This document shows, one piece after another, positions 4,170 through 35,685 of a DNA stretch of 64,000 nt (position 1 is its first letter; each line of letters opens with the position of its first letter). The notes beneath the pieces are model-generated. The model saw only the letters and a list, made by a program, of their open reading frames with translations, was not told where the DNA came from and made no database searches. Location of the stretch: the NCBI GenBank assembly GCA_020161065.1, contig JAIUPH010000011.1:496001-560000 (forward strand), read 5' to 3'. The position numbers were made by a program, and so were the translations under genes. The stretch is from Pseudomonadota bacterium (GTDB lineage Bacteria; Pseudomonadota; Gammaproteobacteria; Burkholderiales; Burkholderiaceae_C).

Positions 4170-5253
4170 AGCGCCGGGAGACCTTTTCGAACTCGTCGGT
4201 GAGGTTGAGGAAGGCGTCGATCACCAGCGGGTCGAACTGCGTGCCGCGGCCGGCGGCCACCAGCTCGACCACCTCGCGGTGCGGCATCGGCGCCTTGTAG
4301 CAGCGGCGGCTGATCAGCGCGTCGTAGACGTCGGCCGGCGCCATCAGCCGCGCCGACAGCGGAATCGCCTCGCCGGCCAGGCCGTCGGGGTAGCCGGCGC
4401 CGTCCCAGCGCTCGTGGTGGCTGCAGGCGATGTCCTTGGCCACGCGCAGGAACTCGGCCGTCACGCCGAGCTGGGCCTCGGCGCGCTCGATGGCCTCGCG
4501 GCCGTAGCGCGCGTGCTTCTTCATCTCCTCCCACTCCTCGGCGTTCAGCGGCCCGGGCTTGAGCAGCACGCGGTCGGGCACGCCGACCTTGCCGATGTCG
4601 TGCAGCGGCGCCGACTTGAAGAACAGCGCGATCTGCGCGTCGGTGAGCAGCGCCTGGTCGCGCGGGAAGCGGCGCAGCTCCAGCGCCAGCAGCCGCACGC
4701 AGTGCTTGGTGCGCAGGATGTGGTTGCCGGTCTCGTTGTCGCGCGTCTCGGCCAGCGAGGCCAGCGTCTGGATGGTGATGTCCTGGATCAGCTCGTTTTC
4801 CGCGGTGCGCCGCGCCACCTCTTCTTCCAGCCGCTCGTTGTGGTGGCGCAGGTAGTCGCGCGCGCGCTTGAGCTCGACGTGGTTGCGCACGCGGGCCATC
4901 AGCACCTCGCCGCTGATGGGCTTGCGGATGAAGTCCACCGCGCCGCGGCGCAAGGCGTCGGTCTCGTCGGAGGTGTCGGACAGCGCGGTCAGGAAGATCA
5001 CCGGCAGCCCGGCCAGCGCCGGCGTGGCCTGCATCTCGCGCAGCACGGCAAAGCCGTCGGGCGAGCCCATCATCACGTCGAGCAGCACCAGGTCGACCGC
5101 GGCGCCGCTGCGCAGCAGCTTCAGCGCCGCCGTGCCGCTGGCCGCCGCGCGCACCTGGAAGTCGTTGCGCAGCACCTCGTGACAGAACGCGATCACGTCG
5201 GGGCTGTCGTCGACGACGAGCACCCGCCCCTTGCCTTCGAAGATCTCGCCCAT
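4141..5253 (-). CDS. Response regulator with HD-GYP domain (probable c-di-GMP phosphodiesterase)
   Basis: A cytoplasmic 370-residue protein with an N-terminal receiver domain. The acidic pair is D15-D16, the phospho-acceptor is D59 (LVLLDVMM), and the switch residues are T89 and K111. A linker helix at about 125-155 leads into an HD-GYP domain with HD at 218-219 (APLHDIGK), HHE at 279-281 and DGAGYPDGL at 284-292. All motifs expected for cyclic di-GMP hydrolysis are present and the length is normal for the class. It lies upstream of, and overlaps, the pseudokinase/ATPase/GAF gene, which suggests that the large protein helps control its phosphorylation. Known for the family: phosphodiesterase output. 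Inferred: the partnership. ATG at 5253 is preferred over an upstream start in a shadow frame. Confidence 0.93.
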   Translation of the reverse strand: MGEIFEGKGRVLVVDDSPDVIAFCHEVLRNDFQVRAAASGTAALKLLRSGAAVDLVLLDVMMGSPDGFAVLREMQATPALAGLPVIFLTALSDTSDETDALRRGAVDFIRKPISGEVLMARVRNHVELKRARDYLRHHNERLEEEVARRTAENELIQDITIQTLASLAETRDNETGNHILRTKHCVRLLALELRRFPRDQALLTDAQIALFFKSAPLHDIGKVGVPDRVLLKPGPLNAEEWEEMKKHARYGREAIERAEAQLGVTAEFLRVAKDIACSHHERWDGAGYPDGLAGEAIPLSARLMAPADVYDALISRRCYKAPMPHREVVELVAAGRGTQFDPLVIDAFLNLTDEFEKVSRRYADPPEPAP

Positions 5254-24866: not shown

Positions 24867-24916
24867 TTGGTGGGCAGTGCAGGGTTCGAACCTGCGACCC
24901 CTGCCGTGTGAAGGCA
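24867..24916. repeat. attL: 50-bp copy of the tRNA-Val 3' half
   Basis: A perfect 50-base direct repeat of 35636-35685. It contains the T-arm, acceptor 3' strand, CCA and part of the anticodon arm of tRNA-Val(CAC), minus strand, but not the 5' half, so it is not a functional tRNA. It is the chromosomal tRNA end displaced by integration. AT-richer sequence follows on the element side, as is usual for attP arms. Confidence 0.95.
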
Positions 24917-25000
24917 TCGTATATTTGTTTTCGGCTGTTCGTCGATGTCCGATTTACCTATGAAGATGGTTCGCGGGGACGCTAGAATGTTCGCCTAGGT

Positions 25001-25020
25001 TTTCCCCACTTTTCCCCACT
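25001..25020. repeat. Tandem TTTCCCCACT pair near attL
   Basis: Two adjacent copies of the decamer TTTCCCCACT lie between attL and the integrase ATG. Closely related TTTCCCCAC and ATTCCCCAC, in the same orientation, occur near attR (35561-35580). Such paired short repeats at both ends are expected of integrase arm-type binding sites; function is inferred. Confidence 0.55.
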
Positions 25021-25025
25021 CGTTC

Positions 25026-26222
25026 ATGGCGAACATCACCAAGGTCTCCGACCGGGCGAGCCTCAAGCCACGGTCCGAACCGTACTGGCTAAAGCTGTCA
25101 ACCGGCGCTTACATCGGGTTCCGCCGGATGACGGCCACGTCGATCGGCACGTGGATCGCGTATTGGCGCGACGCGGCGACTGGGAAGAAGACGAAGGCCA
25201 GCCTCGGCGACTTCGAGCACCTGCCGCCGTCCGAGCGATACGACGCGGCGCGCAAAGCGGCCGACGAGTGGTTTGATGGCCGCGCCGCCGGGATACGCAC
25301 CGACGTGGGCACGGTGCGCGATGCCTGCGTGGCATACGTCGAGCACCTGCGCGCGCGCGGCAATGGGCCGGCGAACGATGCGCTGGGCCGGCTAGAGCGC
25401 CGTGTGATCGGGCGCGAGAAGGCCAGCCGGAAGCAGCCACTGAAGGCAAACCCGCTCGCCGCGTTGAAGCTCGATAGCTTGAGGCTGCACCACTTGAAGA
25501 AGTGGCGTGCCGGCCTGCCGCAGGCCACCCGGGCCGAGAAGGCATCCTCGCAGCGCGACCTGAACACCCTGAAGGCCGTTCTCAACTTCGCCCGCGGCGA
25601 GCAGATGGTTTCAAGCGATGAAGCGTGGAGCACGCTGCCAGGCTTCGACAACATCGGCGCCGGCAACACGGCGCGCGAGTACCTGACCGTCCAGCAGCGA
25701 CGCCAGTTGCTCGATGCTTGCGAGCCCGCATTGCGCGACCTGTTGGAGGGCTTGGCGTTGCTCGGCGCTCGGCCGATTGAACTGGCCCGCGCCACCGTGG
25801 CCGACTACGACGCTCACAGCGCCACGCTGTCGCTGTGGAGCATGAAGGGCAAGCCTGCCATCAAGCGCGTGCGCAGCGTGCCCCTGAAGGCCCTTCCCGG
25901 CGCCTTGGCGCTGGTGCAGCGGCTGGCAAAGGCGAAGCTGCCCGGGGCGCCGCTGTGGACCCGTGCCGATGGCTTGGCGTGGCAGCACAGCGACCATGAT
26001 GAACTCGTGCGCGCTGCGGCGCTGGCCGCAGGTATGCCCGGCGTGACTGCGTACGCCTTGCGCCATGCGTTCATCACCGATGCCGTGAGTAGCGGCGCAC
26101 CGATTGACGTGGTGGGCCGAGTGGTCGGCACGTCGGCCGCGATGATCGAAAAGACGTACGGCAAGCTCGTGCAGGAGCACGCTATCCAGGCCTTCGCCGG
26201 CATGGCGAAGCAGGCACTTTGA
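25026..26222 (+). CDS. int: Tyrosine-recombinase integrase of the satellite
   Basis: A 398-residue site-specific recombinase that would insert the element at tRNA-Val and excise it. The N-terminal half has the arm-binding fold and a SAM-like core-binding region (about 95-200). The catalytic domain shows R249 (LLGARPIEL), a beta-hairpin Lys near 274-280, YALRH (343-347, with R346; Tyr replaces the usual first His), T369 in VVGTSAAMIEK where His is commonest, and the nucleophile Y378 (KTYGKL). The variant box II is usual for the branch with a TSxAMIExTY ending. It is the first gene after attL. A TAGAAT at 24983 may be its -10 box. Confidence 0.95.
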   Translation: MANITKVSDRASLKPRSEPYWLKLSTGAYIGFRRMTATSIGTWIAYWRDAATGKKTKASLGDFEHLPPSERYDAARKAADEWFDGRAAGIRTDVGTVRDACVAYVEHLRARGNGPANDALGRLERRVIGREKASRKQPLKANPLAALKLDSLRLHHLKKWRAGLPQATRAEKASSQRDLNTLKAVLNFARGEQMVSSDEAWSTLPGFDNIGAGNTAREYLTVQQRRQLLDACEPALRDLLEGLALLGARPIELARATVADYDAHSATLSLWSMKGKPAIKRVRSVPLKALPGALALVQRLAKAKLPGAPLWTRADGLAWQHSDHDELVRAAALAAGMPGVTAYALRHAFITDAVSSGAPIDVVGRVVGTSAAMIEKTYGKLVQEHAIQAFAGMAKQAL

Positions 26223-26280
26223 ACCGCCGCCCGGCCGGCTGCCGGGCACCGTGGCCGCTGCGGACCAGCGGCAACAAGGC

Positions 26281-26315
26281 GGGCCCGCGAGGCGCTACGA
26301 ACACCGCGCGGGCCC
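26281..26315 (+). terminator. Hairpin after the integrase gene
   Basis: GGGCCCGCG (26281-26289) and CGCGGGCCC (26307-26315) form a 9-bp perfect stem with a 17-base loop, 58 bases after the integrase stop. No strong T-run follows, so rho-independent termination is uncertain; it could also attenuate transcription into the next gene. Confidence 0.4.
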
Positions 26316-26344
26316 TAACCACAACGATGGAAGGACCATCAATC

Positions 26345-26899
26345 ATGGCTAACAAGATTGTCCACGCACCGGCGCCGCGGGCCGCCGGCCGCCGACCCTG
26401 GCGCACATACACCCCCCTCGCGAAGATCTACATGCAGCCCTGCCGCAGCGACGACATGCTCGACTACTTCCTCGGCACCAAGGATGCGCTGGTCGCGGCC
26501 GGGCTCGCGCCCGCTGAGTTGTTCCCTGGTGAACCGGGGCTGCCGAAGTGCAGCGTCACGCTCATGCCGAAAGGCGCGCCCACCGGAAACGGGCGCGTCT
26601 GCACGCCGGGACGGCTGACCCTCAGAAGGCGGGCGAAAGGCCAGTTTCTTGCCGAACTGGTTCCGGTCGCCGACGAGTTGGCGAAGCGGCGCGCACGAGT
26701 CGCAACCGAGCGCGAGACGCCGGCGGCGGCCGGCGGCGAAGCCTTGAAAACCGCCATTCAGCTGCTGGGGCATGCAGAAGTCCTGCATCGCGTGCAAGGC
26801 TACATCAACGTGATTCACGGAGTTGCGCCAGTACCGCGCCGTGACGGCAGGCCGTCGCGCGATTGCTCGCACCTGCGCCTCGTGTGGTCTGCTGCCTGA
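26345..26899 (+). CDS. Hypothetical protein of the satellite (accessory position)
   Basis: A 184-residue protein that I do not recognise. It is basic, with a Pro/Arg-rich N-terminus, a central segment DMLDYFLGTKDALVAAGLAPAELFPGEPG, and a basic patch RLTLRRRAKGQFLAE. No signal peptide, membrane helix or enzyme motif is visible. GGAAGGA lies upstream of the chosen ATG; the frame is open 42 codons further upstream, but that part covers a hairpin. It sits between the integrase and the regulatory genes, a place where satellites often carry cargo such as helper-interference or defence functions. That is positional inference only. Confidence 0.6.
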   Translation: MANKIVHAPAPRAAGRRPWRTYTPLAKIYMQPCRSDDMLDYFLGTKDALVAAGLAPAELFPGEPGLPKCSVTLMPKGAPTGNGRVCTPGRLTLRRRAKGQFLAELVPVADELAKRRARVATERETPAAAGGEALKTAIQLLGHAEVLHRVQGYINVIHGVAPVPRRDGRPSRDCSHLRLVWSAA

Positions 26900-26996
26900 T
26901 CTTGTTCGCCCCCGGCTGCGCCGGCCGGCGGAAACGCGGGACACCTTCACCCGCTGCCGGGGGCGCCCAATGAAGGGCACCACGAAGGGGGTGCGC

Positions 26997-27503
26997 ATGG
27001 CGAAGACGCCGAAGACTCGCAAGGGCGAGACGATCCTGCCCGACCGCCTGGCGCGAGCAGCGCCATACGATGACGTTCTCGCCCTGCCCGCGCAAGAGCA
27101 GTACGAAGCAGCCATCGCACGGAGGGACCGGCTCCGGCAGCACCCAGACCACGCCGCCAAGGAGGTGTTGATGGCGGCATTGCGGGCGACGCTCGCGCGC
27201 CCGGAGGTACGGGCATCCATCACGACCGGACGCCTGGTGTACCTGTTTGAGGAGGTCGTTACCGGCTTCGTGCCCGGCGAGTCCGTCTTGGAGGTCCTAG
27301 AGCCCCTGCACGCCTTCCTGTCGTCTCGCTACGGCGGCGGGCGCCCGCGAAAGGTTGACCATGAGAAAGTGCTGCGCAGGCGATCCGCGCTCGAAGCGGC
27401 GTGGCACCCAACGCCAACGCAGGAAGTAGCGCGGGAGGCTGGCACGTCCGAGCGCAACGTGCAAAAAATCTTAGCGAAGGCCAGGAAGAAAAAACCCGGT
27501 TAG
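26997..27503 (+). CDS. Hypothetical protein with C-terminal helix-turn-helix
   Basis: A 168-residue basic protein. The C-terminal part (TPTQEVAREAGTSERNVQKI, about 138-157) reads as a helix-turn-helix preceding a Lys/Arg-rich tail, and GGGRPRKVDHEKVLRRR upstream of it is also basic, suggesting DNA binding. The N-terminal region is helical with no known motif. ATG at 26997 has AAGGGGG just upstream; an in-frame ATG at 26970 is the alternative. A 10-bp inverted repeat CGCCCCCGGC / GCCGGGGGCG (26907-26916, 26956-26965) lies upstream and may be regulatory. Role unknown; a regulator of the satellite genes is plausible. Confidence 0.65.
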   Translation: MAKTPKTRKGETILPDRLARAAPYDDVLALPAQEQYEAAIARRDRLRQHPDHAAKEVLMAALRATLARPEVRASITTGRLVYLFEEVVTGFVPGESVLEVLEPLHAFLSSRYGGGRPRKVDHEKVLRRRSALEAAWHPTPTQEVAREAGTSERNVQKILAKARKKKPG

Positions 27504-27565
27504 TTCGGGGCGCAGGGGTCTGATTCGTTCGTTTTCAACCGCCACCAATTGGCGAAAGGCGAACG

Positions 27566-27793
27566 ATGAACGACTCACCCAAGAACGCTGGCAGCGCGCC
27601 GCAAGCGACCTACACGGTTCCGCAGTTCTGCGATGCGCACAACGTCAGTCGGACGCATCTTTACCAGTTGCTGAAGGACGGCGCCGGGCCGGCCTTGATG
27701 AAGGTCGGCCGTAGGACCCTCATCAGCGTTGAGGCCGCAGCCGCCTGGCGCCGCGACATGGAGGCAGCCACCGCGGCGGAGGCCGCGCAGTGA
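27566..27793 (+). CDS. alpA: AlpA-like helix-turn-helix regulator / excisionase
   Basis: A 75-residue MerR-like winged-helix protein of the AlpA/Xis type: TYTVPQFCDAHNVSRTHLYQ is the helix-turn-helix, PALMKVGRRTLISVEAAAAW the wing and C-terminal helix. AlpA proteins switch on P4-like satellites and PICIs, acting as activators of the element's operon or as excision factors. Its stop overlaps the GTG start of the next gene, so it heads a tightly coupled operon running through the ATPase gene. CGTTCG (27526) and CGAACG (27560) flank its upstream region and could be a binding site. Regulator versus excisionase cannot be told apart from sequence. Confidence 0.85.
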   Translation: MNDSPKNAGSAPQATYTVPQFCDAHNVSRTHLYQLLKDGAGPALMKVGRRTLISVEAAAAWRRDMEAATAAEAAQ

Positions 27794-27972
27794 GCGCCGC
27801 CAAGGGCTTTCATGAGCGCGCGGCCCGCGCGGCGCTCGCAGGTTGGCAGCTCTGGCGCAGCGACGCCGACGACGGCCACGTGCGCTTTTTCGCGGCTCGC
27901 TGGGGCCAGGTCCGCGTCCTGGCCGACCTTGCCGAAGTCGACCGGTTCCTCGCACAGGTGGGCGCGACATGA
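27790..27972 (+). CDS. Small hypothetical protein in the AlpA operon
   Basis: A 60-residue protein starting at GTG inside the alpA stop and ending inside the next ATG, so it is translationally coupled on both sides. The sequence (WQLWRSDADDGHVRFFAARWG, then QVRVLADLAEVDRFLAQVG) is a plausible small alpha/beta protein with no recognised motif. The tight overlaps are the main evidence that it is real. Confidence 0.65.
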   Translation: MSAAKGFHERAARAALAGWQLWRSDADDGHVRFFAARWGQVRVLADLAEVDRFLAQVGAT

Positions 27973-28310
27973 CCCGGCGCAAGATCAGGCCCGAACACGG
28001 AGCAAGCGTAACGCCCGACATGAGTCTTCGGGACGTAGCTTGTGCGCTTGGCGTTTCAACGTCGGAGTTGGGCAGGTGGAGGGCTTTGGCCGCGCTGCCG
28101 AACGACGTGTTCGAGCGCCGGTTGAAGATCGCGCAGAGCGCCTACACCAGCACCGGCCGGCTGGTAACTGCCGAATCAGTTCTACGTGCTGAAGAACCCG
28201 TCCCGGCGCGGGGACGGGTCGAGCGATGGAAGTCGCTTTGGCGCGGCATGAGCGAACAGGAGCGGTGCCGCGCGCGGGCATGGCTGCTGAAGGCTGGGGG
28301 CGCCGCCTGA
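27969..28310 (+). CDS. Small DNA-binding-like protein with HTH
   Basis: A 113-residue protein. Residues about 18-52 (MSLRDVACALGVSTSELGRW, then RALAALPNDVFERRL) read as a helix-turn-helix, with a second half resembling the ALP-hxxFexxL pattern seen in ParB-type HTH domains. The C-terminal part is helical and basic. It overlaps its neighbours by ATGA at both ends within the AlpA-to-ATPase operon. A role in replication initiation or regulation of the satellite is plausible but unproven. Confidence 0.68.
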   Translation: MTRRKIRPEHGASVTPDMSLRDVACALGVSTSELGRWRALAALPNDVFERRLKIAQSAYTSTGRLVTAESVLRAEEPVPARGRVERWKSLWRGMSEQERCRARAWLLKAGGAA

Positions 28311-28585
28311 TGCCGCTCGACCTCAACGACGTGGAAGCGGCGCGCCGCTCCGGCGTTGCGCTGGACGCGATCAGCGCGGCCCAGCGCCAGCACGCCCGGG
28401 AGCATCGCCGACCGGCTGCGCTGACGGCACGCGAGGCCCTGGCCGCGCTCGAGTTCGAGGCGCTACTGGTGCTGGTGGCCGCCGGCAATCTGCGCAACGG
28501 CGAGCCGCTGTGCGACGACGACTTCGAGCGGCTGGCGCTGGCCCAGCGTCGCATTCAGACGCTCGTCGACGAGGTCAATCGATGA
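28310..28585 (+). CDS. Small hypothetical protein in the replication operon
   Basis: A 91-residue, mainly helical protein (LDLNDVEAARRSGVALDAIS, then FEALLVLVAAGNLRNGEP). It shares its first base with the previous stop and overlaps the ATPase start by ATGA. I do not recognise the family. Position suggests a partner of the ATPase, for example a loader or primase cofactor; nothing in the sequence confirms this. Confidence 0.65.
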   Translation: MPLDLNDVEAARRSGVALDAISAAQRQHAREHRRPAALTAREALAALEFEALLVLVAAGNLRNGEPLCDDDFERLALAQRRIQTLVDEVNR

Positions 28586-29565
28586 GTGCGTCGCTGGCTG
28601 AAGTCGCGCAGGCCAAGCTCGACGCGCAAGCTCGGGCACGAGCAACGAATGTTGCTTCGGCGCAGCCGCGCTTCGAGGTGCTCGACGCCGCTGCGCTGTT
28701 GAAACAGGAGATCAAGCCAGTGAACTACTGCGTGCCCGGATGGATTCCTGAAGGCCTGCTAGTGCTGGCGGCGGCGCCGAAAGTGGGCAAATCCACCTTG
28801 ATCCTGCAGATCGCGGTTTGCAAGGCCGCAGGCCTTCCCTTCTGGGGTGCGGACGTGCCGAAGGGCAAGGTGTTGATGATCGACCTGGAGACGAACGAGC
28901 GCCGGCTGCGCCGCAAGCTGGAGTCGGCCGGCGCCACCAGCCTGGAGCCGGGGCGCCTGCTGTATGCGACCGATTGGCCGCGCGGCATGGCTGGCATCAA
29001 CCGCATCGCCGAGTTGCTCGACGCCGAGCCTGAGATTAGCCTGGTGATCGTCGACACGCTGCAGAGATTCCGCGACAGCAGCAAAGGCGGGCAGAACGCC
29101 TATGCCGCCGACTACGATGCGATGGCACCTCTTCAGAAGTTATGTCGCGATCGCTCGGGTCTGGCTATCGTTGTCGTGCATCACAAGCGCAAGGCGGCCA
29201 GTGATGACCCCATCGATAGCCTGAACGGCAGCGCCGCCATTGCTGGTGCGGCAGACGGAATCTGGATCATCACCCGCAAGGGTGGCGACTACATCCTGAA
29301 CGTGCAGGCCAGGGACTGGGAGCGCGACGAGGACGAGTTCCGCATCGAGCGCGATGCCGGGCAGTGGCGCTTGGTGAACGGGCCGCGATTCACGCCGAAT
29401 GAAGCGGCGGTTCTCAAGCTGCTGGAGGTTGGCGGCGGTATGACGGGGCCTCAGCTCGGCGAGGCGCTGGGGGTGCATCGCACGAGTGCGCATGAGCGGC
29501 TGAAGCGCATGCAAGCCCGCGGCCTGATCCTCTTCCGCGATGGCGCATGGCAGATCTCTGTGTGA
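28582..29565 (+). CDS. RecA/RepA-like replication ATPase (AAA_25 type)
   Basis: A 327-residue ATPase. Walker A is AAAPKVGKST (about 63-72); the Walker B-like strand is LVIVDTLQRF (about 156-165); HHKRKA and SLNGSAAIAGAADG further on match the DnaB/RepA-type hexameric helicase core. Residues about 275-327 form a winged helix (MTGPQLGEALGVHRTSAHER). Plasmid RepA and phage-satellite proteins of this class unwind or organise the origin. The iteron array begins 1 base after its stop, which strongly suggests a rep-ori module. No separate primase gene is seen. ATG overlaps the previous stop. Confidence 0.85.
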   Translation: MSASLAEVAQAKLDAQARARATNVASAQPRFEVLDAAALLKQEIKPVNYCVPGWIPEGLLVLAAAPKVGKSTLILQIAVCKAAGLPFWGADVPKGKVLMIDLETNERRLRRKLESAGATSLEPGRLLYATDWPRGMAGINRIAELLDAEPEISLVIVDTLQRFRDSSKGGQNAYAADYDAMAPLQKLCRDRSGLAIVVVHHKRKAASDDPIDSLNGSAAIAGAADGIWIITRKGGDYILNVQARDWERDEDEFRIERDAGQWRLVNGPRFTPNEAAVLKLLEVGGGMTGPQLGEALGVHRTSAHERLKRMQARGLILFRDGAWQISV

Positions 29566-29566
29566 A

Positions 29567-29661
29567 CCCCTACCACCCCTACAAAGAAAGTAGCCCCTAC
29601 AGCCCCTACGGCCCCTACGGCCCCTACGGTAGGGGTGGTAGGGGTGGTAGGGGCGTAGGGG
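29567..29661. repeat. 9-bp-period CCCCTAC / GTAGGGG iteron array (candidate origin)
   Basis: Six CCCCTAC heptamers start at 29567, 29576, 29594, 29603, 29612 and 29621, an exact 9-base period with one unit missing at 29585. They are followed by four inverted GTAGGGG units at 29629, 29638, 29647 and 29655. The array fills the gap between the ATPase gene and a convergent small gene. Direct copies on one side and inverted copies on the other can fold into a long hairpin. Candidate replication origin, or bidirectional terminator; both are inference. Confidence 0.8.
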
Positions 29662-29664
29662 TGG

Positions 29665-29889
29665 CTAGTTCCGCCAGGTCTGCTTGAACTCTTGATCGAA
29701 CCACGATTCCACGTCATAGGAGACCGAGGTGGTCGTTCGAAACTCCAAGTACGCCGAGTAGTTGGCCCGCACCCACGAATGGAAGGCTTCGAAGGACGGA
29801 GCAACGGCTGGATCGGGCGTGATTCCCTGAGCCCGCGCCCACTGGTGGCAAAGCTGTCGAATTGCCTTCTCGGCCTCACCCTTTTTCAT
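29665..29889 (-). CDS. Small conserved hypothetical protein (EFKQTWRN type)
   Basis: A 74-residue protein, the only minus-strand gene of the element. It has normal protein character (IRQLCHQWARAQGI, FHSWVRANYSAYLEF, WFDQEFKQTWRN) and a good ribosome binding site (GAGGA, 7 bases before ATG), unlike the shadows around it. The C-terminal EFKQTWRN ending recalls small phage and island proteins of unknown role. It converges on the ATPase gene with the iteron array between and is divergent from the capsid operon. Confidence 0.72.
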   Translation of the reverse strand: MKKGEAEKAIRQLCHQWARAQGITPDPAVAPSFEAFHSWVRANYSAYLEFRTTTSVSYDVESWFDQEFKQTWRN

Positions 29890-30011
29890 TTCGAGTCCTC
29901 GTTTCTGCGTCTGGCCAATGTAAGCGACGCTCCCGAACGCATGAACCCTTCGCTAGCTAACGCCTTTACTGATCGCCATTGTCCGCCGCTGTTCTTTCTT
30001 CGCGCAGCACG

Positions 30012-30040
30012 TTGACCTTCATGGTTAGGACTGCTACATC
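30012..30040 (+). promoter_or_regulatory. Candidate promoter for the head/packaging operon
   Basis: TTGACC (30012-30017) and TACATC (30035-30040) are 17 bases apart, upstream of the capsid gene and divergent from the small minus-strand gene. The -35 box is good and the -10 box poor, which would fit dependence on an activator. Call based on consensus only. Confidence 0.33.
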
Positions 30041-30071
30041 ACCGACCCATCTTCACAATGGGCGCTTCCTG

Positions 30072-31319
30072 ATGAGCCTCTCTGCGATCCGCGAATCCCG
30101 TGCCGCCAAGGTGGCCGACATGCGTGCCTTGCTGGCGAAAGCCGATGCCGAGCAGCGCAACCTGGCAGCCGATGAGCAAGCGCGCTTCGGCGCGCTGAAG
30201 GCCGAGGTCACCGGGCTTGAAGAGCAAGAGGCGCGCGCGCAGTTTCTGGCCGATGCCGAGCGCCGCATGCTGGGCACGCCCGCTGACGGCGAGCAGCGCG
30301 ACCGCGCCACGCTGGAGGGCCGCGTGTCGCTGTTGCGCATGCTGCAAGCGCAGACCGAGCAACGCGCGCTGACGGGCGCCGAAGCCGAGTTCCACGCCGA
30401 GGCCGAGCGCCGCACCGGCCGCAAGGCGCAGGGCGCCTACGTGCCCATGTCCTTGCTCGAAACCCGCGTCAACACCACGACGAGCGCGGCGGCGACCGTG
30501 GGCACCGACCTTCGTGCCGACCAGTTCATCAGCCCTCTGCGCGCCGCACTGCTGGCCCGGCGCCTGGGCGTGCGGGTGCTCTCTGGCCTGCAGGGCAACG
30601 TATCGGTGCCGCGTCAGACCGGATCGCACACGGTGGGATGGGTGGCCGAGAACAGCGCCGTCCCCGACAGCGACATTGCCACCAACTCGCTGAGCCTGAC
30701 CCCCAGGCACGCGGGCGGCGTCACCGAGATGTCGCGCCAGCTCATCCAGCAGTCGAGCCCCGACATCGAGCAACTGGTGCGCGACGATCTGGCGTTCATG
30801 GTCGCCCGGGCCGTCGACTCGGCGCTGATCGTCGGCGGCGGCGCGAACGAGCCCGTCGGCGTGCTGTCCACCGCGGGCATCCAGACGGCGAGCCTTGCTA
30901 CGCTGAGCTGGGCCAACGCGCTGGACATGATGAAGAAGGTCGAGTCCGAGAACGCTGCATCGGCTTCGACCTGCTGGCTCGGCTCGCCCGAGGTCAAGGC
31001 CAAGCTCGCCGGCACGCTCAAGGTGACGGGCGATGCCGGGGGCGGCTTCCTCCTCGCCGGCGGCCGCATGGCCGAGCTGCAGGCCTACTTCACGACGCAG
31101 ATTCCGCGCAAGACCGGCTCGCCCGACAAGCTGCGCTTGATCCTCGGCGACTGGTCGCAAGTCATGCTCGGCGTCTGGTCCGAGCTCGACCTCCTCGTCA
31201 ACCCGTTCGAGGGCGCGGCCTACGCCCGCGGCGGCGTCAAGGTGCGCGCGATGGCCACGGTCGACATCGGCGTGCGCCAGCCGAAGGCTTTCGTTCACGC
31301 CGAAGACCTCGCGCTGTGA
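30072..31319 (+). CDS. HK97-family major capsid protein
   Basis: A 415-residue capsid subunit that would form the satellite's own head. Residues 1 to about 90 are a charged coiled coil (SAIRESRAAKVADMRALLAK, then EEQEARAQFLADAERR) that serves as the scaffold (delta) domain removed by the protease. The HK97 fold follows, with RLGVRVLSG, VGWVAENSAVPDSD, a P-domain helix (ELVRDDLAFMVARAVDSALI-like) and GGANEPVGVLSTAG. The C-terminus has GVRQPKAFVHAEDLAL. The chosen ATG starts MSLSAIRESR; in-frame starts upstream would add 31 non-conserved residues. Its stop overlaps the GTG start of the protease. Length is normal for phage capsid genes. Confidence 0.93.
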   Translation: MSLSAIRESRAAKVADMRALLAKADAEQRNLAADEQARFGALKAEVTGLEEQEARAQFLADAERRMLGTPADGEQRDRATLEGRVSLLRMLQAQTEQRALTGAEAEFHAEAERRTGRKAQGAYVPMSLLETRVNTTTSAAATVGTDLRADQFISPLRAALLARRLGVRVLSGLQGNVSVPRQTGSHTVGWVAENSAVPDSDIATNSLSLTPRHAGGVTEMSRQLIQQSSPDIEQLVRDDLAFMVARAVDSALIVGGGANEPVGVLSTAGIQTASLATLSWANALDMMKKVESENAASASTCWLGSPEVKAKLAGTLKVTGDAGGGFLLAGGRMAELQAYFTTQIPRKTGSPDKLRLILGDWSQVMLGVWSELDLLVNPFEGAAYARGGVKVRAMATVDIGVRQPKAFVHAEDLAL

Positions 31320-31852
31320 CGCTCGAAGTTCGCACGGCTACCGGCCTGGCGCTGCCCTCACCGGGCAGGCTCGTCGGCCATGCGGCCGTGTTCGATTCGC
31401 CGGCCGACCTGGGCCAGTTCGTGGAGGTTGTACGCCCCGGCGCGTTCACCCGCAGCCTGCGACAACCCGGCGCCATCACGGCGCTGTACGACCACGAGCG
31501 GCGCAGCATACTCGGGAGAGTGTCGGCCGGCACCCTGCGACTGCACGAGGACGCGCGTGGACTGGCTTTCGAGGTTGACCTGCCCGACACCACTGTGGGC
31601 CGTGACTTGGCCGTGCTGGTGCAGCGTGGTGACGTGGCTGGTTGCTCGTTCGGCTTCATAGTCCCGCCAGGCGGTGACCGCTGGGAGAGCCGCGCCGACA
31701 AGCCGCTGCGCGAACTGCGCGGCGTCGATCTGCACGAGATCACCATCACGTCGGCGCCGGCCTACGCCGACACGGCGGTGGCGATTCGCAGCATGCCCCG
31801 CCGCGACGCCGATGCGCTGCGCCTGCATCGTCTGTGGTTCGAGACCGTATGA
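31316..31852 (+). CDS. HK97-family prohead protease
   Basis: A 178-residue serine protease (U35 type) that matures the head by cutting the capsid scaffold domain. It starts at GTG inside the capsid stop. Family features: VGHAAVFDSPADLG, VRPGAFTRSL, the catalytic His H60 in ALYDHERRSILGR, the catalytic Ser S111 in GCSFGFIV, and LHEITITSAPAYADT near the C-terminus. All expected residues are present, so it looks functional. Its stop overlaps the portal start by ATGA. Capsid-protease-portal is the reverse of the usual phage order (portal-protease-capsid). Confidence 0.92.
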   Translation: MTLEVRTATGLALPSPGRLVGHAAVFDSPADLGQFVEVVRPGAFTRSLRQPGAITALYDHERRSILGRVSAGTLRLHEDARGLAFEVDLPDTTVGRDLAVLVQRGDVAGCSFGFIVPPGGDRWESRADKPLRELRGVDLHEITITSAPAYADTAVAIRSMPRRDADALRLHRLWFETV

Positions 31853-32994
31853 GCGTCCTCGACCGCATGCTCGGCTTCGTCGGCCTGGAGCGCCGCACCG
31901 CGTCAGCCGATCCGTACTGGAGCAACTTCGCCGCGTTGCGCGGCGGCGCCATCACGCCCCGCAGCGCGGAGAGCGTGTCCGCGGTCTACGCCTGCGTGTC
32001 GGCCATCAGCGAGACCATCGCCTCGCTGCCGCTGATCCTGTTCCGGCGCACCGAGGACGACGGCCGCGAGCGCGCGAAGGATCATCCGCTGTACCGCGTC
32101 CTACACGAGGCGCCGAACCCGCAGCAGACCGCGCTGGAGTTCCGCGAGCTGATGCAGGCCTCGGTGTTGCTGCGCGGCAATGCCTTCGCCGAAATCGTGC
32201 GCGGCTACGACGGCCAGGCGCGCGCGCTGCTGCCGCTGCATGCCGATCGCGTGCAGGTGCTGAAGCTGGACGGCGGCCGGCTCGGCTACGACGTTCACGA
32301 CGACCGCGGCCAGCGCCGCCGCCTGCTGCAGGAAGAGATCTTCCATCTGCGCCACCGCAGCGCCGACGGCGTGCTCGGCGTGAGCCCGATCGCAGCCGCC
32401 CGCGAGGTCGTCGAGCTGGCCATCGCCGAGCGCGAGCACGGCACGGCGACCTTTCGCAACGGCACCAAGGCGACCGGCGTCCTCCGGTTCCCCGGAAAGC
32501 TCTCGGTGCAGCAGCGCGAAGCCATCGCGCAGAGCTGGTCGAGCCAGCACGCGGGCGCGCACAACCACGGCCGGACGCCGATCCTCGAAGAGGGTGTGGA
32601 CTACACGCCGGTGTCGATGACGCTCGAAGATGCCGAGTGGATCGGCGCGCGAGCGTTCAGTGTCGAAGAGATCTGCCGCTTGTTCCGCGTGCCGCCTACC
32701 GTCGTCGGCGACCTGCGGCACGGCAACTACAGCAACAGTGTCGAGATGGCCCGCCAGTTCGCCACACTGACCTTGCGCCGCTACCTGACCATGTGGGAAC
32801 AGGCCATCGGCCGTTGCCTGCTGACTGAGGCCGGCCGCCGGATCTACTTCGCCGAGCACAGCGTCGAGGGCCTGTTGCGCGGCGACAGCCTGACCCGCGC
32901 GCAGTTCTACGAACGCGCCATCGCTGATGGCTGGATGAGCGCCGACGAGGTGCGACGCCTGGAGAACCTGCCAGCAAGGATGCCCGGTGTCTAA
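31849..32994 (+). CDS. HK97-family phage portal protein
   Basis: A 381-residue protein forming the dodecameric DNA-entry ring of the head. It opens with FGLERR-like MLGFVGLERRT, then SAVYACVSAISETIASLPL (portal family signature), PNPQQTALEFRELMQ, LRGNAFAEIV, and a C-terminal part with FGVPPTVVG-like FRVPPTVVGDLRHGNYSN and EQFATLTLRRYLTMWEQ-like segments. Length is close to the family norm. It is coupled to the protease by ATGA and overlaps the HNH gene by 8 bases. No head-tail connector or adaptor gene follows, which is a notable gap for a structure that must accept a tail. Confidence 0.93.
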   Translation: MSVLDRMLGFVGLERRTASADPYWSNFAALRGGAITPRSAESVSAVYACVSAISETIASLPLILFRRTEDDGRERAKDHPLYRVLHEAPNPQQTALEFRELMQASVLLRGNAFAEIVRGYDGQARALLPLHADRVQVLKLDGGRLGYDVHDDRGQRRRLLQEEIFHLRHRSADGVLGVSPIAAAREVVELAIAEREHGTATFRNGTKATGVLRFPGKLSVQQREAIAQSWSSQHAGAHNHGRTPILEEGVDYTPVSMTLEDAEWIGARAFSVEEICRLFRVPPTVVGDLRHGNYSNSVEMARQFATLTLRRYLTMWEQAIGRCLLTEAGRRIYFAEHSVEGLLRGDSLTRAQFYERAIADGWMSADEVRRLENLPARMPGV

Positions 32995-33406
32995 GCCACG
33001 CCTGAAGACCCTGCAGCCGCTGGTCAAGCCGCTGCCGCCGCTCGTCAAGCCGCTGCGCAAGCCCCGCGCAAAGCGCTCTGGCCGCGATGCCGACCCGCGC
33101 CGCACCCTTGCCCTCAACACGGCCGCTTGGCAGCGCCTGCGGGCTTCTGTGCTCGCTGGCGAGCCCTTGTGCCGCGCGTGCAAGGCGCGCGGTGTCGTCG
33201 AGCCTGCTACCGACGTGGATCACGTCAACGGCGATCCGAGCGACAACAGCCGCGCCAATCTGCAGCCGCTGTGCCATGCCTGCCACTCGCGCAAGACCGC
33301 GGCCGACCACGGCAAGAGCGTGACGCAGGGCTGCGACGCCAACGGGATGCCGCTCGATCCGGCGCATCCGTGGAACGCAGGAATCGCCAGCAACCGAGAG
33401 CGCTAG
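32987..33406 (+). CDS. HNH endonuclease (packaging-associated)
   Basis: A 139-residue nuclease starting at GTG within the portal gene's end. The HNH/zinc motif is intact: CRACKARG (zinc Cys pair), DVDHVNGDPSDNSRANLQPL (catalytic His, Asn), CHACHSRK (second Cys pair and final His). The N-terminus has a Lys/Pro-rich repeated stretch (PLVKPLPPLVKPLRKPRAKR). HNH proteins next to TerS/TerL in HK97-like phages are needed for terminase cleavage at cos during packaging. Location directly before TerS and TerL fits that role and suggests cos-type packaging. Confidence 0.9.
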   Translation: MSKPRLKTLQPLVKPLPPLVKPLRKPRAKRSGRDADPRRTLALNTAAWQRLRASVLAGEPLCRACKARGVVEPATDVDHVNGDPSDNSRANLQPLCHACHSRKTAADHGKSVTQGCDANGMPLDPAHPWNAGIASNRER

Positions 33407-33457
33407 ACCGACCGGTCCCCCGCGTTTCACTGCCATCTGCCCAAAAATGAGGCACCC

Positions 33458-33871
33458 ATGAAGTCCACGCCGCGCCGCAAGCCTTCCACCTCTGCCGCCG
33501 CCGCCGTGCAGGCCGCGCAGAACGTCGCACAAGGCCCGATCGCGCCGCCGCAATACGTGAGCCTGCCCGAGCCATGCCGGCCGTTCTGGGATGCCGTGAT
33601 GACCAGCCGGCCGCGCGATACGTGGACCGACTCCGACCTGGTGCTGGCTGCCAACCTGGCCCGCACGCAGCACGCAATCGAGGCGGCGCCGGTCGGCTCT
33701 GATGAGCACGCCAAGTTGACCCGCCTGGCGATGGCCCTCGCTCGCGCCGTGGCCGTGCATCCGACTGCCACCGTGGGCCGGGCTGCCGACATGGTGAACG
33801 CGGCCACGGCCGAGCGCGAGGCCCGCCAAGAACACGACGATCTGATCCCGACGCTGCGCGTGGTGCGATGA
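33458..33871 (+). CDS. terS: Phage terminase small subunit (P27 family)
   Basis: A 137-residue DNA-recognition subunit of the packaging motor. It has the P27-type layout: a basic, Ala-rich N-terminus, then LPEPCRPFWDAVMTSRPRDTW, LVLAANLARTQHAIE and a C-terminal helical segment (RAVAVHPTATVGRAADMVNA). The ATG follows AATGAGG. Its stop overlaps the TerL start by ATGA. In cf-PICIs this subunit confers specificity for the satellite's own pac or cos site instead of the helper's. The 51-base gap before it (33407-33457) is a possible place for cos, but no site is recognisable. Confidence 0.85.
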   Translation: MKSTPRRKPSTSAAAAVQAAQNVAQGPIAPPQYVSLPEPCRPFWDAVMTSRPRDTWTDSDLVLAANLARTQHAIEAAPVGSDEHAKLTRLAMALARAVAVHPTATVGRAADMVNAATAEREARQEHDDLIPTLRVVR

Positions 33872-35373
33872 CCCGCGCCGATCGCGTCATCGAGTTCATC
33901 GAGCGCTACTGCCTGACGCCTGACGGTGCGATGGTGGGCCAGCCGCTGAAGCTGGCTGCGTTTCAGAAGCGGTTCATCGTGGACGTGTACGACAACCCGG
34001 CCGGCACCCGCCGGGCCATCTTGTCGCTGGCGCGCAAGAACGGCAAGACGGCGCTGATCGCCGGCCTACTGCTGGCGCACTTGGTCGGGCCCGAGGCCAG
34101 GCAGAACGGCCAGATCATCAGCGGCGCGATGTCCCGGGATCAGGCCGCGCTGGTGTTCGGCCTGGCGTCGAAGATGGTGGGGCTTTCGCCGAAGTTGTCG
34201 GCCATCGTGCGCATCGTGCCCTCGGGCAAGCGGCTGCTGGGCCTGCCGCTCAACACCGAGTATCGAGCGCTGGCCGCGGACGGCCGCACGGCGCACGGGC
34301 TATCCCCGGTGCTGGCCATCCTCGACGAGGTGGGCCAGGTGCGCGGGCCGCAATCCGACTTCGTTGACGCCATCACCACCAGCCAGGGCGCGCACGAGGC
34401 GCCACTGCTGATCGCCATCAGCACGCAGGCCGCCACCGACGCCGATCTGCTGTCGACCTGGATCGATGACGCCATCGGCTCGGCCGACCCGCGCATCGTG
34501 TGCCACCTGCACGCTGCGCCGGCGGGCTGCGACCTGCTGGACGAGGCCGCTTGGCACGCGGCGAATCCCGCGCTGCGCGCGTTCCGCAGCCTGGACGACC
34601 TGCGCGAGCAACTCACGCAGGCGCAGCGCATGCCGAGCGCGGAGAACACGGCGCGCAACCTGCTGTTGAACCAGCGGGTTAGCACCGAAAGCCCGTTCAT
34701 CAGCCCCGACGTGTGGAAGTCCTGCAGCGGGCCCGTGACGGCCTTCGACGGCCCGGTCTATGCGGGCCTGGACCTGTCGGCCCGCACGGACCTGACGGCA
34801 CTGGTGATCGTCGGCCAGGTGGGCGGCGTGTGGCAGGTGCAGCCGCACTTCTGGACGCCCGAGCAAGGCCTTGCCGAGCGCGCCAGGCGCGACCGGGCGC
34901 CTTACGAGGTGTGGGCACGCCAGGGCCACCTGCATACGACGCCGGGCGCGACGGTGGACTATGAGCACGTGGCGGCCGACCTGGGCGCGATCCTGGGCGA
35001 CCACGACGTGCAGGCCATCGCCTATGACCGCTGGCGCATCGACTTGCTGCGCAAGGAGCTGTCGAAGGCCGGGATCGAGTTGCCGTTGGTGGAGTGGGGC
35101 CAGGGCTACAAGGACATGAGCCCCGCGCTGGATGCGCTGGAGGCCGAGCTGCTGAATGGGCGCCTGCGCCACGGCGGGCATCCGGTGCTGCAGATGTGCG
35201 CCAGCAATGCGGTTGTGACGCGCGATCCCGCCGGCGCCAGGAAGCTGGACAAGGCGCGCGCCACGGGCCGCATCGACGGCCTGCAGGCGCTGGCTATGGC
35301 CATGGGTGCGGCCAGCAGGACCGAAGACACCGGGCCCAGCCGCTACGAAAGCGAAGGCTTCATGTTCGTCTGA
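33868..35373 (+). CDS. terL: Phage terminase large subunit
   Basis: A 501-residue packaging ATPase and nuclease. Walker A variant ARKNGKTAL (about 55-63), Walker B LAILDE (149-154) and coupling motif AISTQA form the N-terminal motor. The C-terminal RNase H-like nuclease has GLDLSARTDLTALV (first Asp), ATVDYEHVA, YDRWRI and a final DGLQALAMAMG acidic segment. Length and motifs are complete. It belongs to the HK97/Terminase_1 branch. It is the last gene of the element's operon, with about 160 bases to the right-end repeats. Inferred: it packages satellite DNA into the element's own procapsid. Confidence 0.93.
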   Translation: MTRADRVIEFIERYCLTPDGAMVGQPLKLAAFQKRFIVDVYDNPAGTRRAILSLARKNGKTALIAGLLLAHLVGPEARQNGQIISGAMSRDQAALVFGLASKMVGLSPKLSAIVRIVPSGKRLLGLPLNTEYRALAADGRTAHGLSPVLAILDEVGQVRGPQSDFVDAITTSQGAHEAPLLIAISTQAATDADLLSTWIDDAIGSADPRIVCHLHAAPAGCDLLDEAAWHAANPALRAFRSLDDLREQLTQAQRMPSAENTARNLLLNQRVSTESPFISPDVWKSCSGPVTAFDGPVYAGLDLSARTDLTALVIVGQVGGVWQVQPHFWTPEQGLAERARRDRAPYEVWARQGHLHTTPGATVDYEHVAADLGAILGDHDVQAIAYDRWRIDLLRKELSKAGIELPLVEWGQGYKDMSPALDALEAELLNGRLRHGGHPVLQMCASNAVVTRDPAGARKLDKARATGRIDGLQALAMAMGAASRTEDTGPSRYESEGFMFV

Positions 35374-35534
35374 ATGACTGGGCTGCGCGGTCGAGACTGT
35401 CGGCCATAGACCGCGTGGCTGCCGCCTCTCACGAGGTGGCTTCATCACCCATGACCGGCACCGGCCCGCGCTTGGGCGGGGCACCTCGGACGCTGGATTC
35501 GACCGGCGGCACGGTGCCACTCTGATCGTGCGCC

Positions 35535-35560
35535 ATCGTTCGCTCCGGCCCGCGAACGAT
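35535..35560. other. 8-bp hairpin ATCGTTCG / CGAACGAT after terL
   Basis: ATCGTTCG (35535-35542) and CGAACGAT (35553-35560) form a perfect stem around a 10-base loop, directly followed by TTTCCCC. The half-site CGAACGAT also occurs just before the alpA ATG (27560-27567), with CGTTCG upstream of it. It could be a terminator for the head operon or a regulator/Xis binding site. Confidence 0.45.
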
Positions 35561-35580
35561 TTTCCCCACAAATTCCCCAC
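35561..35580. repeat. TTTCCCCAC / ATTCCCCAC pair near attR
   Basis: Two copies (35561-35569 and 35572-35580) of the motif found in tandem by attL at 25001-25020, in the same orientation, about 55-75 bases inside attR. Consistent with integrase arm sites at the right end of the element. Confidence 0.5.
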
Positions 35581-35582
35581 CA

Positions 35583-35629
35583 CAAGCAAATGCGGCGCAC
35601 TTGGCGCCGCTAAGTCTTTGATTTGCTTG
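35583..35629 (-). terminator. Nested inverted repeat supplying a new tRNA-Val 3' boundary
   Basis: CAAGCAAAT (35583-35591) pairs with ATTTGCTTG (35621-35629). Inside it, GCGGCGC (35592-35598) pairs with GCGCCGC (35604-35610) over a 5-base loop, with one 10-base bulge. It lies 7 bases beyond the tRNA-Val CCA end on the minus strand. Since integration separates the tRNA from its original downstream sequence, this probably replaces the terminator. Function inferred. Confidence 0.5.
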
Positions 35630-35635
35630 ATGTTT

Positions 35636-35685
35636 TTGGTGGGCAGTGCAGGGTTCGAACCTGCGACCCCTGCCGTGTGAAGGCA
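35636..35685. repeat. attR: 50-bp repeat inside tRNA-Val
   Basis: Identical to 24867-24916. This copy is joined to the native 5' half of tRNA-Val, so the element's attP restored an intact tRNA gene on integration. The crossover must lie within these 50 bases. Confidence 0.95.

What the first reader, a model, noticed from the sequence alone, without database searches (positions are those of the whole stretch)
24867..35685. Capsid-forming phage satellite (cf-PICI-like) in a betaproteobacterial tRNA-Val
Seen: integrase, AlpA, a replication ATPase with adjoining iterons, and a full intact head/packaging set in 10.8 kb between perfect 50-bp att repeats. No tail, connector, lysis or CI-type repressor genes are present. 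Known: capsid-forming PICIs carry heads and terminase and steal only tails from helper phages. Inference: this is such a satellite in a Burkholderiales host, with its own head and dependence on an unknown tailed helper.
Basis: partly seen in the sequence, partly recalled or inferred. Interest (0 to 1): 0.85.

Follow-up and report, generated by a model that had tools for sequence, protein, structure and literature searches.

The report
Head-making phage satellite without connectors
An 11-kilobase island in a bacterial chromosome carries the genes to build and fill its own virus head but none that we could recognise for a tail or for the ring proteins that join head to tail, so to move between cells it would have to borrow both from a helper virus.

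Summary
An intact 10.77-kb island lies between perfect 50-bp repeats at a tRNA-Val(cac) gene. It encodes integrase, an AlpA-like regulator, a RepA-like ATPase with ten CCCCTAC repeats, and MCP, protease, portal, HNH, TerS and TerL. No tail or lysis gene was recognised. Relatives in Burkholderiales, Nitrosospira, Pseudomonas and halomonads share the head gene order. Fourteen elements bounded by long repeats measure 10.4-11.8 kb, and three further relatives occur as circular contigs. Satellite portals form a clade apart from the 11 phage portals tested (100/100), and the capsid matches only 77 of 50,697 phage records, all distantly. This supports a satellite of the capsid-forming PICI (cf-PICI) type. 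The window island and its two fully bounded nearest relatives have neither by HMM and Pfam tests (the window also by profile-profile comparison). I read it as a compact, connector-less cf-PICI-like variant that would need a helper's connectors as well as its tail. The host also carries a Mu-like prophage region with tail genes and its own adaptor, an untested candidate helper. Mobilisation is not shown.

The parts
24867..24916 (.). left attachment repeat, copy of the tRNA-Val 3' end
   Evidence: perfect 50-bp repeat
25002..25019 (+). TTCCCCAC pair, possible integrase arm site, left
25026..26222 (+). tyrosine integrase, 398 aa
   Evidence: phrog_1 E 3.5e-28; Pfam Phage_integrase E 2.6e-5, just under its cut-off
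26345..26899 (+). orfA, 184 aa, unknown
   Evidence: no PHROG or Pfam match; model pLDDT 35, uninformative
26997..27503 (+). orfB, 168 aa, weak C-terminal HTH (sigma-70 r4-like)
   Evidence: PF08281 E 0.0019, below cut-off
27566..27793 (+). AlpA-like regulator/excisionase, 75 aa
   Evidence: HTH_17 above cut-off; Phage_AlpA only E 0.063
27790..27972 (+). orfC, 60 aa, with relatives in L034, L114, L032 and three further loci
27969..28310 (+). orfD, 113 aa, unknown, helical model of low confidence
28310..28585 (+). orfE, 91 aa, 24 related ORFs, connector-bearing elements included
28582..29565 (+). RepA-like AAA_25 ATPase with C-terminal winged helix
   Evidence: PF13481 E 6.4e-32, MarR_2
29567..29661 (.). 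CCCCTAC iteron-like cluster, 6 forward and 4 reverse
29665..29889 (-). orfR, 74 aa, unknown
   Evidence: relatives in L045 and L139
30072..31319 (+). HK97-fold major capsid protein with N-terminal scaffold-like (delta) region
   Evidence: PF05065 E 1.2e-33; TIGR01554
31316..31852 (+). prohead protease (S78), GTG start
   Evidence: PF04586 E 4.8e-43
31849..32994 (+). HK97-type portal
   Evidence: TIGR01537 E 2.7e-76
32987..33406 (+). HNH endonuclease
   Evidence: phrog_2323 E 2.5e-31
33458..33871 (+). small terminase
   Evidence: phrog_5601 E 5.3e-28
33868..35373 (+). large terminase, 65% identical to HK022 TerL
35374..35635 (.). 262 bp between TerL and the right repeat, where most relatives carry Ad1 and/or Hc1; no recognisable gene here
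35562..35580 (+). TTCCCCAC pair, possible integrase arm site, right
35636..35685 (.). right attachment repeat, inside tRNA-Val(cac) 35711-35637 (-)

Best explanation
The island is a phage satellite of the capsid-forming PICI kind, in a compact (about 10.8 kb) branch of Beta- and Gammaproteobacteria, and its own clade lacks both head-tail connector genes, most likely by loss. Most likely course: a helper phage induces it; integrase, with AlpA perhaps acting as excisionase or activator, excises it at the tRNA-Val repeats; the Rep ATPase replicates it from the CCCCTAC cluster; MCP, protease and portal build a small head; HNH, TerS and TerL fill it with satellite DNA. Unlike published cf-PICIs it must then take adaptor and closure proteins from the helper as well as the tail, so the neck of the particle would be hybrid. 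Shown: gene content, boundaries, no detectable member of the two connector families, conservation under purifying selection, circular forms of relatives. Inferred: every mobilisation step.
For: Satellite: bounded island in a tRNA gene. Relatives share the order. Of 114 loci (window, 80 viral, 33 genome), 14 have long repeats at both ends; they measure 10.4-11.8 kb, mean 10.82, SD 0.40 (sizes). 3 of 115 loci tested (L048, L093, L132; the 115 include two E. coli prophage stretches) have 55-127-bp terminal repeats, i.e. circular contigs of 10.4-10.9 kb. Portals: 37 satellite rows against 11 phage rows, 100/100. Capsid matches 77 of 50,697 phage records, at most 34% identity in the 15 listed. Connectors: neither PF05135 nor PF05521 anywhere in the host genome (98.7% complete) at E 0.1, while 3 of 14 control genomes ring. 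hhalign of nine window proteins to Ad1 and Hc1 profiles: probability at most 0.74%, against 100% for phage gp6 and gp7 controls. Of the 14: 5 have neither gene (window, L114, L034, L119, L121), 4 Ad1 only, 1 a short Hc1 frame only, 4 both (window). The window's portal clade has 5 rows (100/99); its 3 fully bounded members all lack both. Function kept: in that clade MCP and portal have dN 0.16-0.23 and dS 0.49-0.75; TerL against L034 0.11 and 0.44.
Against: No excision, particle or transfer was observed for this island or its clade; all three circular contigs belong to other branches and carry connectors. A very divergent connector could escape the tests, and orfA, orfB and orfD have no informative homologue. 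The tree tool warns that the long branch between phage and satellite portals is the kind of join that can be false. TerS (0.45 against 0.82 with L034), HNH with L114 (0.46 against 0.72) and the L032 protease (0.50 against 0.81) show a weaker dN/dS contrast, and TerL with L114 or L033 is too divergent to judge. The portal segment that I recall as the HK97 clip shows neither extra conservation nor extra drift (0.548 identity to connector-bearing relatives against 0.56 among those). No published cf-PICI sequence was obtained, so capsid clustering with the known radiations was not tested.
Confidence: 0.6

Rival explanations
1. A decaying satellite: the connector cassette was deleted, so the island is stuck, and the remaining head genes are simply not yet broken.
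For: Connectors not found. The tree needs at least 5 changes of connector state, as random deletions would give.
Against: All head frames are open. Three bounded members of one clade lack the genes yet differ in integrase (37% identity for L034, 38% for L114) and, for L114, in terminase (37%), so the state has outlived module swaps. dN is well below dS for MCP and portal.
Confidence: 0.2
2. A canonical cf-PICI whose connectors are present but too divergent to see (orfA, orfB or orfD), so that it steals only tails.
For: orfA, orfB and orfD have no informative family match. In L046 and L047 the connectors sit at another place, between portal and HNH.
Against: Profile-profile probabilities at most 0.50% for these ORFs. 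They lie beside integrase and AlpA, not with the head genes. The relatives' connectors are easily seen: E 1e-23 or better, with the exceptions of L047 Ad1 (1.1e-5), L133 Hc1 (2e-17) and L122 Hc1 (4.5e-18).
Confidence: 0.12
3. Remnant of an ordinary HK97-like prophage that lost tail, lysis and control genes.
For: TerL is 65% identical to that of HK022; the head genes are of HK97 type.
Against: Gene order (MCP-protease-portal-HNH-TerS-TerL) differs from the HK97-like prophages read (TerL-portal-protease-MCP-connectors-tail). Portal and MCP are far from the phage records. Size and order are constant in many tRNA sites.
Confidence: 0.03
4. The heads package and release island DNA without a tail of their own, and any tailed phage present later supplies neck and tail outside the cell, as tail-less cf-PICI capsids are reported to do (He et al. 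2025, recalled; seen here only as a reference in PMC12846349).
For: Consistent with a complete head and packaging set and no lysis gene.
Against: cf-PICIs are described with adapter genes; a bare portal vertex would leak DNA unless plugged (inference).
Confidence: 0.05

Closest known systems
Capsid-forming PICIs (cf-PICIs; e.g. EcCIEDL933, Alqurainy et al. 2023, original not held)
   Same: integrase, alpA, own capsid, protease, portal, HNH and terminases; no tail or lysis genes; chromosomal integration
   Different: no adaptor or closure genes found; 10.8 kb against a published average of 14 kb; Burkholderiales host, a group not named in that paper's list (PMC10803314, passages); RepA-like ATPase where PMC10448857 (passage) names Pri-Rep
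cf-PISP TG54 of Vibrio crassostreae (PMC13230959, passages)
   Same: satellite with head, HNH and terminase set, without tail
   Different: TG54 is episomal, 15-16 kb, and encodes head-tail adapter and closure; this island is integrated, smaller and has neither
HK97/HK022-like phages
   Same: HK97-type capsid, protease and portal families; TerL 65% identical to HK022
   Different: the 20 TerL matches listed are phages of 31-42 kb; the three E. coli prophages read have tails, lysis genes and another gene order
Connector-bearing relatives of this study (e.g. L134 Salinicola, L138 Pseudomonas aeruginosa PA7, L151 Acidovorax)
   Same: head order; size and repeats in L134 and L138
   Different: carry Ad1 (PF05135 type) and Hc1 (PF05521 type) after TerL

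Membership tests
capsid-forming PICI (cf-PICI) | integrase and att sites in the chromosome | tested here: met
capsid-forming PICI (cf-PICI) | alpA homologue | tested here: met
   HTH_17 above cut-off; Phage_AlpA itself only E 0.063
capsid-forming PICI (cf-PICI) | own capsid, prohead protease, portal, HNH and terminases | tested here: met
capsid-forming PICI (cf-PICI) | head-tail adapter genes (named as signature genes in PMC10448857; adapter and closure in TG54) | tested here: not met
capsid-forming PICI (cf-PICI) | Pri-Rep replication initiator | tested here: inconclusive
   AAA_25 ATPase with winged helix; PHROG matches to primase/helicase proteins cover the ATPase part
capsid-forming PICI (cf-PICI) | no tail or lysis genes (PMC12987554, legend, shows some cf-PICIs with putative tape measure genes, so not strict) | tested here: met
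capsid-forming PICI (cf-PICI) | capsid falls in one of the three published cf-PICI capsid radiations (PMC11389934) | not tested
   no published cf-PICI sequence was obtained; E. coli searches gave nine TerL hits, three read and all full prophages, or nothing
capsid-forming PICI (cf-PICI) | mobilised by a helper that gives only its tail | not testable with these tools
   needs induction and particle analysis
classical PICI | no own capsid; remodels the helper's capsid | tested here: not met
   own MCP, portal and protease
P4-like satellite | Psu/Sid/Delta-type helper-control genes and P4 primase (recalled) | tested here: not met
   no such family among the island proteins scanned
tailed prophage (HK97-like) | tail, lysis and repressor genes between att sites | tested here: not met

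The most novel reading that the evidence does not exclude
A recurrent class of satellites that make their own heads but have dropped the neck: their portal accepts connectors made by helpers, so the particle is hybrid at the portal-adaptor joint and not, as in known cf-PICIs, at the adaptor-tail joint. The constant genome size near 10.8 kb would come from a head smaller than the usual cf-PICI shell; by volume scaling from HK97 (T=7, 39.7 kb, both recalled), T=3 would hold about 11.1 kb and T=4 about 17.2 kb.
Probability: 0.45. Interest if true: 0.72.

Novelty: new variant of a known kind. Interest (0 to 1): 0.57.

Why it matters
cf-PICIs are thought to cross species because their heads accept several phages' tails, and the connector is the joint where that choice is made. 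A natural series of relatives with both, one or no connector genes makes it directly testable which joint sets helper range and whether a portal alone can recruit a foreign neck. It also extends head-forming satellites to Burkholderiales and other groups with a tight size class. I found no description of such satellites in betaproteobacteria in the open-licence library: 'phage satellite' + 'Burkholderia' + 'capsid' lists 4 papers, none on this by title and abstract start, and 'phage satellites' + 'betaproteobacteria' lists none. No dedicated search was made for the other host groups.

Tried and rejected
Empty site: 59 of 60 genus members searched (own genome included) have some match to the right flank, 49 of them at E 1e-260 or better. 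The island's left flank was not found in any of 18 congener stretches read at that tRNA (three of the 18 run out within 2 kb of the tRNA); its genes match elsewhere. So no clean empty site; the att repeats carry the boundary claim.

'No tail source in the host' was my working claim after PF10145, PF04984, PF05135 and PF05521 gave nothing. I rejected it when PF13550 led to the Mu-like region on contig C33.

orfA as a shared gene of connector-less elements: one partial hit at first (E 0.00042); later iterations drifted. Rejected.

AlphaFold of orfA and orfD, single sequence: pLDDT 35 and 52, not used for fold search. PADLOC on six small ORFs: nothing.

The first Hc1 profile was polluted by overlapping frames; rebuilt it from start-trimmed frames and supersedes it for Hc1. 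The connector labels of the trees were typed and rest on Ad1; 54 of 134 rows and 8 of 48 carry no label. The count of changes does not tell losses from gains.

The positive controls are flattered, since their alignments drew on the same ORF pool; gp10 served as a negative control (at most 0.16%).

Portal clip comparison: inconclusive.

E. coli yardstick: TerL DNA found 9 of 5,426 genomes; three of the nine were read and are HK97-like prophages with tails. The L081 portal found none.

PDB entry 9gyi (385 aa, 4 chains) matches the capsid profile mainly in its N-terminal scaffold region. I suspect the E. coli cf-PICI capsid, but no call names the entry.


Full report
WHAT IS THERE. The finding's coordinates are right. 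Two perfect 50-bp repeats, 24867-24916 and 35636-35685, are 10,769 bp apart. The right one is the 3' part of the only tRNA in the window, tRNA-Val(cac), 35711-35637 on the minus strand. Just inside each repeat is a pair of TTCCCCAC motifs; these 4 are all the copies in 64 kb (0.9 expected). I read them as integrase arm sites. Between the repeats: integrase, orfA, orfB, an AlpA-like regulator, orfC, orfD and orfE, a RepA-like ATPase with a winged helix, ten CCCCTAC repeats in both orientations, one small reverse ORF, then MCP, protease, portal, HNH, TerS and TerL, mostly overlapping by a few bases. No connector, tail or lysis gene was recognised. The island is single copy: TerL, MCP and HK97-type portal each give one place in the 6.29-Mb genome.

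RELATIVES. A viral-contig scan with the portal matched 118 stretches, 116 of them relatives; the best 80 were kept. A scan of one genome per species gave 33 loci, in Burkholderiales, Nitrosospira, Pseudomonas (including P. aeruginosa PA7), halomonads, Marinobacter and others. In 299 family genomes sampled, 42 (own included) have a capsid match at E 0.001; own and 8 others have close ones (47% identity or more). Recognised head genes keep the order MCP-protease-portal-HNH-TerS-TerL. Qualifications: contigs cut by their ends lack some; L132 is circularly permuted; where TerL is of a second type (31-41% identical) TerS was not recognised; L057, L130, L140 and L141 have an extra gene after MCP. 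Of 114 loci (window, 80 viral, 33 genome), 14 have long repeats at both ends (43-57 bp perfect; L034's 45-bp pair has one mismatch). They lie at tRNA-Val, Arg, Lys, Thr or Pro genes where ARAGORN found one (none was called for L134) and measure 10.4-11.8 kb, mean 10.82, SD 0.40. Others sit beside tRNA-Ser, tRNA-Leu or tmRNA genes. Three of 115 loci tested (113 relatives, two E. coli prophage stretches) have 55-127-bp terminal repeats, the mark of circular contigs: L048, L093 and L132, 10.4-10.9 kb. Many of the 115 are cut from longer contigs and could not show this. So the excised or concatemeric form of the family is seen, in connector-bearing members.

NOT A PROPHAGE REMNANT. The portal's matches among 2,303 phage records are all under 60%, at most 42% in the 40 listed, against 53-80% in the 80 loci. 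In a tree of 48 portals (the window, 36 of 128 other satellite rows, and 11 phage rows) the satellites are one side of a 100/100 branch; the tool warns that long branches meet there. The capsid matches 77 of 50,697 phage records, all under 60%, at most 34% in the 15 listed. TerL, in contrast, is 65% identical to that of HK022 and is exchanged among satellites: 86% to L034, 37% to L114. The HK97-like E. coli prophages read have another order, with connectors and tails after the capsid.

THE MISSING NECK. Most relatives have, right after TerL, a gp6-like adaptor (Ad1; PF05135 E 1.1e-13, phrog_40; nearest solved structure a chain named Gp6, 3jvo, E 1.3e-7) and/or a head-closure gene (Hc1; PF05521 E 1.3e-22, phrog_25; 2kz4, E 3.5e-11). 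The Ad1 cluster occurs in 39 of 57 elements clustered. In L046 and L047 the pair lies between portal and HNH. The window has 262 bp between the TerL stop and the repeat, with no recognisable gene. Tests on the window: HMMs over all frames; Pfam over the whole host genome, zero matches at E 0.1 for both families, while 3 of 14 control genomes ring; hhalign of nine window proteins, at most 0.74% probability, with phage controls at 100% (controls flattered, see Tried and rejected). Among the 14 bounded elements 5 have neither gene (window, L114, L034, L119, L121), 4 only Ad1 (L116, L130, L144, L037), 1 only a short Hc1 frame (L122) and 4 both (L134, L136, L138, L141) (the window). In ten further stretches of family genomes (L151-L160), 7 have both, L155 has neither, and L159 and L160 end at TerL. 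Curated Pfam scans of 15 hosts or records: no match in those of L114, L119, L120, L117, L155, L034, L040, L044, L033 and L032 (the viral records may be fragments). The hosts of L118 and L126 do have matches, at positions outside the loci read here. The single PF05135 match in the host shared by L121 and L116 fits L116's gene by coordinates. Hosts of the controls L134 and L130 ring. The window's portal clade (window, L033, L114, L032, L034; 100/99) has three bounded members, all without connectors; the other two contigs stop too early to tell. On the tree the connector state changes at least 5 times.

IS IT KEPT? Within the clade, MCP and portal show dN 0.16-0.23 and dS 0.49-0.75, and TerL against L034 0.11 and 0.44 (simple Nei-Gojobori). 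TerS, HNH with L114 and the L032 protease show a weaker contrast, and TerL with L114 and L033 is too divergent. The state therefore coexists with working-looking head genes, with different integrases and with a swapped terminase. That speaks against fresh decay but does not prove activity.

HELPER. Pfam sheath and PhageMin_Tail gave nothing in the host. PF13550 led to contig C33 (about 422-462 kb), where PHROGs and Pfam find a Mu-type transposase, Mu portal, major head protein, Gp36 adaptor (PF07030), tail terminator, major tail protein, tape measure (PF06791) and tail-tip proteins (ten proteins scanned, completeness not established). It is a candidate helper with its own adaptor. Nothing links it to the island. 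Published work warns that co-resident prophages need not be helpers: EcCIEDL933's strain has 17 prophages and none mobilised it detectably (PMC11389934, passage).

COMPARISON WITH WHAT IS KNOWN. Papers seen only as passages found by term: PMC10803314, PMC13230959, PMC11389934, PMC13345588, PMC12846349, PMC12987554, PMC13376191, PMC10448857, PMC12409344, PMC13362518. The founding paper (Alqurainy 2023) is not held; He et al. 2025 was seen only as a reference. [quoted passage not shown] some encode putative tape measure genes. The island meets the tested features except the adapter genes, and its Rep is of uncertain match. I therefore call it cf-PICI-like, a variant, and not a canonical cf-PICI. 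'Works like a cf-PICI in making its own head' is well supported by gene content; 'steals only tails' is not.

LIMITS. No published cf-PICI sequence was available to place the capsid. Contigs and MAGs may be mis-assembled, though three independent bounded members of the clade agree. All function is inferred.

Noticed in passing
L057:6127-6720, L130:8818-9450, L140:8806-9480, L141:8557-9480: Four head-forming satellites carry, between MCP and protease, a homologue of the lambda/HK97 tail assembly protein I (found by phmmer with E. coli prophage tail assembly proteins; PF06805 over cut-off in L057, no Pfam match in L140, L130 and L141 not scanned). A tail-assembly gene in tail-less satellites could bear on tail choice or exclusion.
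   Followed up: partly
L119:13730-14461; L120:13528-14610: A glycosyltransferase-like cargo gene (PF00535 E 0.0076, under its cut-off, in L119; judged by eye in L120, which had no Pfam match) sits where other relatives have their connectors.
   Followed up: partly
G000:C33 about 422-462 kb (L208-L210): Mu-like transposable prophage region with a long tail module in the same genome.
   Followed up: partly
tRNA-Val(cac) in congeners G300, G308, G310, G319, G321, G335: Second partial copies of the tRNA-Val 3' end, about 1.4-70 kb from the tRNA in five of these genomes and on another contig in G335, suggest other islands use the same site.
   Followed up: no
L034 about 4585-4780; L032 about 4340-4550: Relatives have other short motifs repeated in both orientations between the early genes and MCP (GGGAAACC-like in L034, GGAACC-like in L032), as if each Rep had its own iterons (sequence printed; judged by eye).
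   Followed up: no
L048, L093, L132: Circular contigs of 10.4-10.9 kb: excised or concatemeric satellite DNA.
   Followed up: partly
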